From a virus, in IMG/VR virus record IMGVR_UViG_3300027712_001108, positions 62,001 to 126,000 of that record: DNA of 64,000 bases. One strand, 5' to 3'. Position 1 is the stretch's first letter. Each line of letters starts with the position of its first letter. Below are positions 20,146 to 30,469 of this stretch, one piece after another. The translations under genes and the position numbers were made by a program. Under the pieces are notes generated by a model, which ran no database searches, was not told the DNA's origin, and saw nothing but the letters and a program-made list of their open reading frames with translations.

Positions 20146-21135
20146 ATGAAAATATTAGCACTAAGCGTTGCGCTTACACTAGCAGCATTCACGACTGCGT
20201 CTGCCAAAGACGTTGTACAATTAACAGGAAGTTCTACAGTTTTGCCATTTGCCACAATTGCTGCTGAAGCATTTGGTGAAAATTACAAATTTGGCACGCC
20301 AATTGTTGAAGGTGGTGGTACTGGTGCAGGTATTGCAAAGTTTTGTGAAACTGATGATGCCGAATCAGTTGATATTGCTGATGCATCACGCAAGATGAAG
20401 TCAGGCGAATTGTCGCTGTGCCACAAGAACGGTGTTAGTAAAGTTCTTGAAGTGCGTATTGGCTATGATGGTATCGTATTTGCATCTGCTGCAAGCGGGC
20501 CAGAGTTTGCCTTTACTCCCAGTGACTGGTTCAAGGCACTGGCTGCTGAAGTTGACATAGACGGCAAGCTAGTACCCAATCCCTATACCAAGTGGAACCA
20601 AGTTGACCCCAAGTTGCCCGACCAAGAGATTTTGGTATTCATCCCAGGTACCAAACACGGCACACGCGAAGTATTTGACCAAAAGGTCGTCACCAAAGGT
20701 TGCACAGTATTCAAATCTGACAAACTGTTCAAAGCCCGCGATGGCAAGGCAGATGGTTGTACTGTACTGCGTAAAGATGGTCGTGCTGTGGAGATTGACG
20801 GCGACTACACCGAAACTCTAAAGCGTCTCGAAGCCAACCCAACATCTATGGGTGTATTCGGCTTGTCGTTCTATGAGAACAATACTGACAAACTGCGTGT
20901 GGCTACCTTCCAGGGTGTGGTTCCTAATAAAGAAACCATTGCTGCTGGCAAGTATGCAGTATCACGTCCGCTGTTCATGTATGTTAAGACACAACATTTT
21001 GGTACTACTCCTGGTTTGAAAGAGTTTGTACAATACGTTGTATCTGACGAACTGGCTGGCCCAAATGGCGTTATGGTAGAAGCTGGGCTTGTAGCTGATC
21101 CCAAGCTAGCAGAGACTCAAGCAAAAGTTAAGTGA
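20146..21135 (+). CDS. pstS: PstS-like phosphate-binding protein
   Basis: 329 residues. Signal peptide of about residues 1-20 (MKILALSVALTLAAFTTASA). Mature part begins KDVVQLTGSSTVLPF, with the S-S/T phosphate-binding turn, then EGGGTGAGIAKFC and DIADASR, as in PstS-type periplasmic phosphate-binding proteins. It would feed the host Pst ABC transporter during infection. The upstream Pho box suggests induction by the host PhoB under phosphate starvation. No other pst gene is in the window. Confidence 0.88.
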   Translation: MKILALSVALTLAAFTTASAKDVVQLTGSSTVLPFATIAAEAFGENYKFGTPIVEGGGTGAGIAKFCETDDAESVDIADASRKMKSGELSLCHKNGVSKVLEVRIGYDGIVFASAASGPEFAFTPSDWFKALAAEVDIDGKLVPNPYTKWNQVDPKLPDQEILVFIPGTKHGTREVFDQKVVTKGCTVFKSDKLFKARDGKADGCTVLRKDGRAVEIDGDYTETLKRLEANPTSMGVFGLSFYENNTDKLRVATFQGVVPNKETIAAGKYAVSRPLFMYVKTQHFGTTPGLKEFVQYVVSDELAGPNGVMVEAGLVADPKLAETQAKVK

Positions 21136-21614: not shown

Positions 21615-22130
21615 ATGAAATACTTGGCATTTTTAGACATAGATGGTGTTTTTACATCTGCTCGTGTACAATATGCGTCTGCAAACTCCAATGATATGTG
21701 GAACAAATTCGACCCCACTGCAATCGAGTTTATGAACAAGTTGCACGACAGAGTCAAGGATCTGCATTTTGTTTTGATTTCAACATGGAAAGAACACTTG
21801 CGCGAAGCTGATGAACAAACTGCGCATTGGATAATTGCAGCTTTTCGTAATGCAGGATTTCGCGGCGAATTTGCATCGCCGTGGAAGACCAATCCTGACA
21901 ACTTTGCTCGCTTTTATGAGAAAGGTATGACTCGCGCCAATGAGATCAAAGAATATCTAGAAGTGTATGCACCAAGTAATCAAGACTATATCATCTTTGA
22001 TGACAACGACTACGGGTTCGAAACTGTACTTGGTAAGAATCGCTGGGTGCATACCGACGGAAACAATGGTATCCTGTTGAAACACATGTACAATGCCATG
22101 AGCATTGTAGGTGAATGGGATACAAAATAA
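21615..22130 (+). CDS. HAD-superfamily protein of the RNA-repair-associated type
   Basis: 171 residues. FLDIDGVF is HAD motif I (two catalytic Asp), LISTWKEH gives the motif II Ser/Thr region and IIFDDNDYG the motif IV acidic pair. The layout matches the HAD domain seen in 'Swiss army knife' RNA-repair proteins. A nucleotide or RNA-end phosphatase role is likely. The structured RNA at 22131 starts directly after its stop codon. Confidence 0.7.
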   Translation: MKYLAFLDIDGVFTSARVQYASANSNDMWNKFDPTAIEFMNKLHDRVKDLHFVLISTWKEHLREADEQTAHWIIAAFRNAGFRGEFASPWKTNPDNFARFYEKGMTRANEIKEYLEVYAPSNQDYIIFDDNDYGFETVLGKNRWVHTDGNNGILLKHMYNAMSIVGEWDTK

Positions 22131-22348
22131 AAGTATCAGGCGGTTGGCTTAGAAGCAGCCATCCTTTGAAGAGTGGAACCAAGCACCATTGGACGCCAAA
22201 GAACCTGTATCGGGCTGCAAACGATTGCAAGTGGTGTAGGAGATTGCTATATGGAAAAATGCGGATAGTAACAGAGTCCCCAGTGACTACAAAGTAGTGC
22301 AACTGTACGGCAACTGTTTTCCTTTGGCGTAGCAGCACACTGATACTT
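22131..22348 (+). ncRNA. Structured RNA carrying a 23S rRNA GTPase-associated-centre mimic
   Basis: Closed by AAGTATCAG (22131-22139) with CTGATACTT (22340-22348). Bases 22143-22163, including GGCTTAGAAGCAGCC, are identical to E. coli 23S rRNA around A1067 (about nt 1059-1079), the L11/EF-G/thiostrepton site. TTTGAAGA follows where rRNA has TTTAAAGA, then the second hairpin is altered. A further helix ACGCCAAAG (22193-22201) / CTTTGGCGT (22322-22330) makes a multi-way junction. No ORF fits. Confidence 0.8.
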
Positions 22349-22963: not shown

Positions 22964-23093
22964 TCCCTAGTAGCTCAGGGGCAGAGCAGCTGACTGGGTC
23001 CGAAAATACTGTAAAGTGGATTTGTGGAGTTCGAAACTCCTAGGACAAAATTTAATCAGCGAGTCGGTGGTTCGAAACCATCCTAGGGAGCCA
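22964..23093 (+). tRNA. tRNA-Asn (GTT) interrupted by a 55-base insert
   Basis: Outer cloverleaf is complete: acceptor TCCCTAG/CTAGGGA, anticodon stem GCTGA (22989-22993)/TCAGC (23056-23060), T-loop TTCGAAA, discriminator G, CCA. Removing 22997-23051 leaves loop CTGTTAA (Asn). The insert contains GTCC...GGAC around a T-arm-like GGAG-TTCGAAA-CTCC. It is far too short for a group I intron; a recombination duplicate of a tRNA 3' part is possible. Confidence 0.65.
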
Positions 23094-23480
23094 AAAATTT
23101 CAGAAGGCAGCGTAGCTTGCACGGATGAGTGTACCACTGCAAACCAAACTTAACTGTTTTGAGTTTTGTATGTCGCCACATCGAGGTCGGGAGATCTATT
23201 CCCTATATGAGTTAGCCAAGGCTCACTCATACTGGACAAGAGTAGATCATAACCTTGGGAACCCGGACGCTGAAAAGGGGATGCATACCCGTGCCTTTTG
23301 ATTTACCATGGTCCGGAAACGCCTCTTAACAATGCGCAACATTTATAGCAGGGATTTACCTGTGAACCCCAAGGACGCTTGGGACTACGGACATCAAGGG
23401 GTAATAAGCCCCACTTTATTAAACTATACAGTTGCTGAAATCACTTGCATTTCATACCCATAGACGTTAAATATATACAG
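23094..23480 (+). ncRNA. Structured noncoding region
   Basis: No credible ORF over about 430 bases. Hairpins include CCCAAG-GACG-CTTGGG near 23370, GGCTCACTCATA with TATGAGTTAGCC near 23205, and AAGGGG...CCCC near 23398. Probably an RNA processed from the tRNA transcript. Confidence 0.45.
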
Positions 23481-29302: not shown

Positions 29303-30076
29303 ATAAACGACACTGTGTTTACACAGACATATTGGGTAGTAACACTGTTAAGTAGCATTTGGTGATTCTTATGTGAAACAACAGGGTTAAACGCTTTCAA
29401 CAATAAGTTGGGATGTTACAATTAATCACTGTATCTACCGACTGACGATAGAGTAACAGTATGTCGATGCAAACACAGTTAGCTTTAATACACCTAACAA
29501 CAGCGAATGCTCGTTGCTGCTGAAAGAAACGACGGATGATGCAGCTTTAAAGTCCGTTGAACGCTTCTGTTGTAGATGTATTAGAGTTTGGATGATACGG
29601 CCGTTGAGAAACGTGAATATCATCTATGAGATTGGGGGTTTAGCCTCAATAGGATAAGTGCAGTGATGCACCCAAAGCCGGAAAGCCTACATACCGGCGC
29701 TAGTAAAATAGTCCATCTAAACAAGCCTGAACCAGTGTTGACTCGGGCAACCGAAAGCAACACCCGTCCGTAGAAAGGCGGTAGGCAGTAAGTTAGGAGC
29801 TCTGTCCGAAAGGATAGTCGCAGAGCCAGTCGGTGAGCGATAAGAGGGTTGGCGCCCAAACAGAGTTCAGCCAAACTAACGAATGCTGACAGTTAACAGG
29901 TAGTTACAGTGTCTGAGCCCGCAAGCAAAGGCATGGTAGCATTTCAAGAGTGGAAGGGTTAGGCCCCGGATACTTGAAGAAAGGTCAAGTAGTTCGCAAG
30001 ACGAAAGACACGAGGTGTGTTGTATTGGGTATGCCAAAAGCATATTCAGCAGCGGTGGTAGCACATCTCAGATAGG

Positions 30077-30153
30077 TTGCAAATAACTCAGCGGTAGAGT
30101 AATTCCCTTCTAAGGAATCGGCGAAGGTTCAATCCCTTCTTTGATAAATGCAA
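30077..30153 (+). tRNA. tRNA-Arg-like (TCT) element embedded in the long RNA
   Basis: D-arm ACTC/GAGT, anticodon arm ATTCC-CTTCTAA-GGAAT and T-arm GAAGG-TTCAATC-CCTTC are perfect. The acceptor is TTGCAAA against TTTG-CAA, split by a 7-base insert ATAAATG, and no CCA is present. It is likely a structural domain of the long RNA, not a working tRNA. Confidence 0.6.
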
Positions 30154-30469
30154 AGTCTACCACGGTATGTTGTGTAAGGTGTCAAATACTTGAGGCGCAA
30201 GCCAATCAAGTTCAACAAAGCTCGCAAGGCAGCGTTGATTTGTACTAGAAGATTCGTAGCTCGCAAGGCTTAATGGTTCGCAAGATCAACGGATAATAAG
30301 GTGCAGAATAGCAGCATATGACGAGTCTACTGCCTGACTCTAAAAACGGCGACACTGTTAGTGGACCAGATTACCGCAAGGGATCTAGTGGATGTCGGAA
30401 GAAAGCAACTCGCAAGGTTGGTAATAATGTCCGAAGCATTAACATCGAACGTGTAATCTCAGCGTTTTC

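What the first reader, a model, noticed from the sequence alone, without database searches (positions are those of the whole stretch)
22131..22348. Phage RNA containing a copy of the 23S rRNA GTPase-associated centre
Twenty-one consecutive bases (22143-22163, including GGCTTAGAAGCAGCC) equal bacterial 23S rRNA around A1067, the binding site of L11 and thiostrepton and contact point of EF-G. The following bases keep TTT-x-AAGA at the right place, while the second loop of the centre differs. The segment sits in a compact RNA of 218 bases closed by a 9-pair helix that begins at the stop codon of an RNA-repair-type HAD gene. It could titrate L11 or L10/L12, damp RelA activation, or decoy translational GTPases or thiopeptides.
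Basis: partly seen in the sequence, partly recalled or inferred. Interest (0 to 1): 0.93.

Follow-up and report, generated by a model that had tools for sequence, protein, structure and literature searches.

The report
Phage RNA mimicking ribosome's GTPase-associated centre
Many large bacterial viruses carry, usually among their tRNA genes, a previously undescribed small RNA that rebuilds the spot on the bacterial ribosome where protein L11 sits, which suggests (not yet tested) that they use it as a decoy to capture that protein.

Summary
Window 22131-22348 is one member of an undescribed structured RNA class: 134 distinct examples, nearly all in large phages. Each has a variable 9-bp closing helix in place of 23S helix 42, the whole H43 hairpin (A1067 loop), and, after a 50-390 nt insert, the second GAC hairpin (A1095 loop, GCGUANNAGC). 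A covariance model built without the window finds it at E=1e-26 with the same ends. Covariation is very strong (score 0.678 vs 0.164±0.012 shuffled, 0/500). Real 23S hits score far lower. Rfam 15 has no match, and the searchable papers describe nothing like it. In 134 loci all 758 tRNAs found lie on the RNA's strand, often 1-12 nt away, so it looks like a stable trans-acting RNA of tRNA operons. The GAC tertiary and L11-site bases are invariant, A1061 (used in the E. coli 58-mer shown to bind L11) is common, and A1067 is relaxed. No helix-42 kink-turn, sarcin-ricin loop or other 23S piece is present. Best reading: a decoy that folds as the GAC and binds host L11; downstream effects are inferred. 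Function is untested.

The parts
22131..22348 (+). complete GAC-mimic RNA (218 nt)
   Evidence: model R2, built without the window: 95.9 bits, E=1.1e-26, these exact ends; R1 101 bits
22131..22139 (+). P1 5' strand (replaces 23S helix 42)
   Evidence: pairs with 22340-22348; 9 bp with changes on both sides in all nine pairs
22140..22170 (+). helix-43 hairpin and 1082-1086 lonely pair = 23S 1056-1086; A1067 is 22151, U1060 is 22144
   Evidence: 21-nt identity; 1058-1080, 1057-1081, 1082-1086 covary in relatives
22171..22174 (+). 5' strand of helix 44 = 23S 1087-1090 (GAGU; A1088 at 22172)
   Evidence: G1087-C1102 and U1090-A1101 pairs in 98/99 and 99/99 relatives
22175..22326 (+). variable insert in helix 44 between 1090 and 1091, closed by P3 (22175-22178 with 22319-22322) and ending in linker UUUG
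   Evidence: P3 pairs 99/99, 98/99, 92/99 with 3-6 pair types at exact register; no other 23S similarity
22327..22339 (+). 3' half of helix 44 with the second GAC loop = 23S 1091-1103 (GCGUAGCAGCACA; A1095 at 22331)
   Evidence: 1091-1094 and 1098-1101 invariant, A1095 36/37, in relatives found without using this element as a search word
22340..22348 (+). P1 3' strand
   Evidence: as P1 5' strand
21615..22130 (+). upstream HAD_SAK_2 gene whose stop codon abuts the RNA (neighbour, not shown to be functionally linked)
   Evidence: Pfam PF18143 E=1.6e-15

Best explanation
The RNA is a stable, trans-acting, phage-encoded mimic of the ribosomal GTPase-associated centre (23S nt 1056-1103), expressed with the phage's tRNA operon. 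Shown here: it keeps the GAC secondary structure and the invariant tertiary-contact bases, with an independent domain inserted in helix 44. Inferred: it folds like the GAC and binds host ribosomal protein uL11 (RplK), which the phages tested do not encode themselves. It thereby sequesters newly made or exchangeable L11, leaving part of the ribosomes L11-poor and so relaxed: poorly able to activate RelA/(p)ppGpp and altered in factor-dependent steps. From general knowledge, the L11-L1 operon is autoregulated by L1, so the host would not compensate for L11 capture. The variable insert probably serves stability or a second, lineage-specific partner. Confidence by step: a new RNA class with a GAC core ~0.97; binds L11 ~0.65; acts by titrating L11 ~0.4.
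For: (1) Structure: 94% of cells paired, covariation score 0.678 vs 0.164+-0.012 shuffled, 0/500; slid controls <=0.173. (2) U1060, C1072, A1077, A1084, A1085, G1087 and A1088 are invariant in members found only through the 3' motif; 1091-1094 and 1098-1101 are invariant (A1095 36/37) in members found only through the 5' motif. (3) Position 1061 is A in 24/56 of the former but U in 22/22 sampled bacterial 23S; the U1061A 58-mer is the isolated GAC RNA that folds and binds L11 in vitro (PMC10161774). (4) A1067, the factor, tRNA-elbow and thiopeptide contact, is not A in 12/56 but is A in 22/22 sampled 23S: fold and L11 site are kept while the factor contact is relaxed. (5) No recurrent protein neighbour (best family in 15/134 loci), 758/758 tRNAs co-directional, tRNA ends 1-12 nt away: a trans-acting stable RNA rather than a leader. 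(6) No L11 gene in 20 carrying genomes, control 14/14.
Against: No expression, binding or infection data exist here. The same conservation would be seen if any other GAC-fold ligand were the target. L11 is abundant, so titration needs high RNA copy number. Some carriers encode L12-like or EF-Tu-like proteins, which could point to stalk or GTPase biology instead. The window's own copy has one broken pair (1057x1081) and A1084G. The 23S comparison set is small and was found by similarity.
Confidence: 0.5

Rival explanations
1. Decoy for translational GTPases (EF-G, IF2, EF-Tu, RF3) or for RelA with its tRNA: the RNA offers the A1067/A1095 face to factors and slows or redirects host translation.
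For: Both loops are kept. EF-G is reported to bind isolated GAC oligoribonucleotides (Munishkin & Wool 1997, cited in PMC5829649). EF-Tu-type genes occur in 3/31 and L12-type domains over cut-off in 4/31 carrying records.
Against: A1067 is G/U in 12/56 members found without using that loop. No sarcin-ricin mimic above chance (4 vs 1.7 expected). No other 23S piece in the insert. Isolated GAC is thought to bind factors only weakly (general knowledge).
Confidence: 0.15
2. Decoy or bait for a host defence enzyme, rRNA-modifying enzyme or toxin that recognises the GAC, in the same spirit in which phage tRNAs answer tRNA-cleaving defences.
For: Lies in tRNA arrays, beside RNA-repair genes in several loci: HAD_SAK_2 in the window, RNA ligase/PNK phrog_8238 in L241, 2'-5' RNA ligase in XacN1.
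Against: No GAC-directed phage-defence nuclease is known to the author; RNA-repair neighbours are not consistent across loci.
Confidence: 0.12
3. Scaffold: the RNA binds L11 (or L11 plus tRNA) as part of a phage ribonucleoprotein, for instance a particle that stores or protects phage tRNAs; A1067 in the ribosome stacks on the tRNA elbow (PMC5829649).
For: Tight, co-directional association with tRNA genes; very variable but always present, helically closed insert.
Against: About 30% of members have no tRNA within the flanks examined; A1067 relaxed.
Confidence: 0.13
4. Cis-acting ribosomal-protein-type leader controlling a neighbouring gene.
For: Known r-protein leaders work by mimicking rRNA sites; several members lie close before an ORF.
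Against: No conserved downstream gene among 134 loci, neighbours often tRNAs.
Confidence: 0.05
5. Assembly chimera or recent accidental capture of host rRNA.
For: 21-nt identity to 23S.
Against: Isolated, finished phage genomes carry it (pf16, UNO-G1W1, BF, GAP32, CBB, XacN1). Members share derived features absent from 23S (insert at 1090/1091, UUUG linker, A1101 with U1090) and covary.
Confidence: 0.005

Closest known systems
Bacterial 23S rRNA GTPase-associated centre (58-nt L11-binding domain, helices 42-44)
   Same: H43 hairpin, 1082-1086 lonely pair, 1087-1102, 1090-1101, 1091-1100, 1092-1099 pairs, invariant U1060/A1088 and both loops
   Different: Not part of an rRNA; helix 42 is a plain variable 9-bp helix; a 50-390 nt domain is inserted between 1090 and 1091 with linker UUUG; 1101 is A (paired with U1090) and the 3' element is CACA instead of CUCA
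Ribosomal-protein mRNA leaders that mimic rRNA (e.g. L10 leader)
   Same: Principle: an RNA copy of an rRNA binding site captures a ribosomal protein
   Different: Viral, apparently trans-acting, in tRNA operons, no linked r-protein gene; no Rfam leader model matches
GOLLD / ROOL and other large structured phage RNAs beside tRNA genes
   Same: Structured non-coding RNA of large phages near tRNAs; GOLLD occurs in the same phage (30012-30465) and in 6/30 carriers
   Different: No detectable relation in sequence or structure; only this RNA has the GAC core
Phage-encoded ribosomal proteins (e.g. bL12, bS21)
   Same: Phage modulation of the host ribosome, possibly of the stalk; 4/31 carriers have an L12-type domain over the Pfam cut-off
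   Different: Here the element is an RNA, not a protein

Membership tests
23S rRNA GAC fold (as a structural module) | H43 hairpin GGCUUAGAAGCAGCC with A1067 loop | tested here: met
   exact in window; 0-3 mismatches in 56 members found through the 3' motif
23S rRNA GAC fold (as a structural module) | H44 hairpin with GUAAUA-type loop and A1095 | tested here: met
   22327-22336; A1095 36/37 in members found through the 5' motif
23S rRNA GAC fold (as a structural module) | tertiary-contact bases U1060, A1088 and lonely pair 1082-1086 | tested here: met
   U1060/A1088 99/99; 1082-1086 paired 90/99 as UA, CG or AU
23S rRNA GAC fold (as a structural module) | binds ribosomal protein L11 | not testable with these tools
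   no biochemical data; inference from the isolated 58-mer (PMC10161774)
LSU rRNA (Rfam) | match to LSU rRNA model / surrounding 23S sequence | tested here: not met
   no Rfam match up to E=10; insert has no 23S similarity above shuffles
Ribosomal L10 leader / L10-L12 binding site | helix-42 kink-turn | tested here: not met
   P1 is a continuous helix of about 9 bp, pairing falls towards background beyond; no Rfam L10 leader match
Ribosomal-protein leader (cis) | conserved downstream gene | tested here: not met
   most recurrent neighbour family in 15/134 loci, GIY-YIG type by sequence inspection
Full translational-factor binding site mimic | sarcin-ricin loop in addition to GAC | tested here: not met
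   4 near matches vs 1.7 expected
tRNA / tmRNA | ARAGORN or Rfam call over the RNA | tested here: not met
   none over 22131-22348

The most novel reading that the evidence does not exclude
A widespread class of viral RNAs that rebuild the ribosome's GTPase-associated centre outside the ribosome and sequester ribosomal protein L11 in trans, making host ribosomes relaxed (RelA-insensitive) and reprogramming translation during infection: viral mimicry of a functional rRNA centre.
Probability: 0.4. Interest if true: 0.96.

Novelty: categorically new. Interest (0 to 1): 0.92.

Why it matters
Viral stable RNAs that mimic an rRNA functional centre do not appear to have been described (no Rfam 15 family; nothing found in the open-access papers searched, which exclude preprints and most subscription journals). 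It would give phages an RNA route to a ribosomal protein and perhaps to the stringent response. It supplies over a hundred natural variants of one of the most studied RNA-protein modules, in which fold-critical and factor-contact bases are separated by evolution. It is directly testable with isolated phages such as pf16, UNO-G1W1, Milchi, BF and GAP32.

Tried and rejected
Assembly chimera with rRNA: rejected (isolate genomes, shared derived features, covariation). Sarcin-ricin mimic in the insert (seen by eye in L019 and L154): 4 matches vs 1.7 expected, rejected. Other 23S fragments in the insert: no excess over shuffles. Known Rfam family: none at E<=10 for the region, none over the RNA in 15 relatives' loci. 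Single-sequence thermodynamic folding: uninformative (z=-1.4; z about 0). Cis-regulatory leader: no consistent neighbour gene. Phage-encoded L11 partner: none in 20 carriers. Chromosomal bacterial family: 3' motif in 1 of 398 Bacillota genomes, the index one, and none in E. coli genomes by a short BLAST; members in bacterial contigs sit by phage-type genes where checked. Promoter/terminator consensus scan: at background. Plasmid BLAST list was mostly real rRNA and was replaced by a 3'-motif query. Caveat handled: conservation of motif positions used in a search is biased, so 5' conservation is quoted for members found by the 3' motif and vice versa; membership still required a loose match to the other motif. 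Model R1 contained the window, so an independent model R2 was built.

Full report
OBSERVATION. The window is bases 62001-126000 of a 157,923-bp virus record. At 22131-22348, directly after the stop codon of a HAD_SAK_2 gene (PF18143, E=1.6e-15), lies a 218-nt segment. Its bases 22143-22163 equal 23S rRNA 1059-1079, and its ends form an exact 9-bp helix. Rfam 15 has no match here up to E=10, while the same window has 34 gathering-level hits including GOLLD, skipping-rope and tRNAs.

IT IS A CLASS. BLASTN with the segment finds intergenic matches in unrelated isolated phages: Pseudomonas UNO-G1W1, pf16, Milchi and Astolliot, Aeromonas 4_4572, Xanthomonas XacN1, Cronobacter GAP32, Pectobacterium CBB (contexts). 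A consensus query adds Serratia BF, several Erwinia jumbo phages, Kaldavass and XbC2. An exact 21-mer scan of IMG/VR gave 78 contigs; only one (L067) shows the 23S continuation. Lining up the others showed that most carry, further downstream, CUUUGGCGUANNAGCACA followed by the complement of the 5' flank. That is the second GAC hairpin (23S 1091-1103). In all there are 134 distinct RNAs, 99 of them under 80% identity to one another in the core.

ANATOMY (E. coli 23S numbering). P1 (9 bp, replacing helix 42) - 1056 - H43 1057-1081 with the A1067 loop - lonely pair 1082-1086 - GAGU (1087-1090) - P3 with a variable domain - linker UUUG - GC GUANNA GC (1091-1100) - ACA - P1'. In 99 representatives pairing is near complete with extensive two-sided change. 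P1 inner pairs 98/99 and 99/99; 1058-1080 98/99 (TA, GC, AT, CG); 1057-1081 96/99; 1082-1086 90/99 (TA, CG, AT); 1087-1102 98/99; U1090-A1101 99/99. P3 is 99/99, 98/99 and 92/99 at one exact register and much lower at other registers. On alignment A1 the whole structure scores 94.0% paired and covariation 0.678, against shuffles of 67.3% and 0.164+-0.012 (0/500) and slid structures of at most 0.173. P1 was not required for the 97 representatives admitted on motif mismatches alone, and pairs in 76-97 of them at each of the nine positions.

INDEPENDENT CHECK. Model R2, built from 15 subfamily members without the window, finds window 22131-22348 at 95.9 bits, E=1.1e-26, as the only hit in the window, and recovers distant members at 70-158 bits. 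Real 23S GACs score 48 bits over 63 nt. The insert shows no similarity to the rest of 23S beyond shuffles. About a quarter of the representatives share an insert module, GNCACCCCGNAANNGGUAAGGNC, with one two-sided covarying pair.

CONTEXT. 93 of 134 loci have a tRNA within 5 kb and 79 within 500 nt. Every one of 758 tRNAs found in the flanks is on the RNA's strand; in 29 loci a tRNA lies within 15 nt upstream and in 30 within 15 nt downstream. tRNA density falls from 1.25/kb in the first kb to 0.3-0.5/kb at 3-5 kb; the outermost bin (6 kb and beyond) is high because all farther tRNAs are pooled there. No protein family recurs (best 15/134). There is mostly one copy per genome in 30 records of 99-519 kb. 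It is rare in bacteria: 1 of 398 Bacillota genomes, none in E. coli genomes by a short BLAST. Bacterial members L241 and L248 lie among phage-type genes. One 909-kb Pseudomonas plasmid carries it inside an 11-tRNA array.

WHAT IT PROBABLY DOES. Conservation separates possible targets. In members found only through the 3' motif, U1060, C1072, A1077, A1084, A1085, G1087 and A1088 are invariant, while A1067 is G or U in 12/56, 1068 is A in 10/56 and 1070 is G in 12/56. In 22 distinct sampled bacterial 23S sequences 1061, 1067, 1068 and 1070 do not vary (a small set found by similarity). 1061 is A in 24/56 phage RNAs; U1061A is the variant used for the isolated 58-nt E. coli GAC, which folds and binds L11 (PMC10161774). 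Selection therefore appears to keep the tertiary fold and the L11-binding domain and to relax A1067, the contact for factors, thiopeptides and the tRNA elbow (PMC5829649). Helix 42 is reduced to a plain helix without a kink-turn, arguing against L10/L12. The sarcin-ricin loop is absent. The phages tested carry no L11 gene. The simplest mechanism is capture of host L11 in trans. Relaxation of RelA control is the natural consequence (L11-deficient cells are relaxed, relC; general knowledge), but is inference. Rivals (GTPase decoy, defence bait, tRNA-storage scaffold) remain open.

NOVELTY. Literature searches, and look-ups in two surveys of structured RNAs (PMC2864571, PMC8040213), found no description. 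Preprints and most subscription papers were not searchable. As an RNA class with an embedded rRNA functional centre in viruses, it is outside the kinds known to me; the underlying principle, an RNA copy of an rRNA site capturing a ribosomal protein, is known from r-protein mRNA leaders.

Noticed in passing
window 22964-23090: A tRNA not called by ARAGORN but scoring 45 bits with Rfam; 127 nt long, with an insertion of roughly 50 nt in the anticodon region, so possibly an intron-bearing tRNA.
   Followed up: partly
window 23100-23440: About 340 nt without a convincing gene or gathering-level Rfam hit, beside the tRNAs; possibly another structured RNA.
   Followed up: partly
window 30012-30465: GOLLD RNA (217 bits) containing a tRNA-Arg (30077-30147), in the same phage; GOLLD also in 6 of 30 GAC-RNA carriers, twice in XacN1.
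   Followed up: partly
L329 (CP136011.1, 909-kb plasmid of Pseudomonas sp. FeN3W): A megaplasmid with an 11-tRNA array, the GAC RNA, its own EF-Tu gene, aminoacyl-tRNA hydrolase and SspB.
   Followed up: partly
G014, G006, W01 (UNO-G1W1), G012: GAC-RNA carriers encoding ribosomal L12-type domains over the Pfam cut-off; enrichment over other large phages not tested.
   Followed up: partly
L084 (Astolliot), record of L175: A second, weaker, tandem copy of the RNA close to the first.
   Followed up: no
L248 and two other loci: A Ro60-like RNA-binding protein gene (phrog_850) within 2 kb of the RNA; other loci have an RNA ligase/polynucleotide kinase gene nearby.
   Followed up: partly
L095, L121, L129, L158, L159, L185: A second tolerated insertion site in the GAC core, a hairpin inserted after 1077 in H43.
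   Followed up: no
window 20146-21135: A PBP-superfamily (PstS-like) substrate-binding protein gene (PF12849, E=1.6e-48) in the phage.
   Followed up: no
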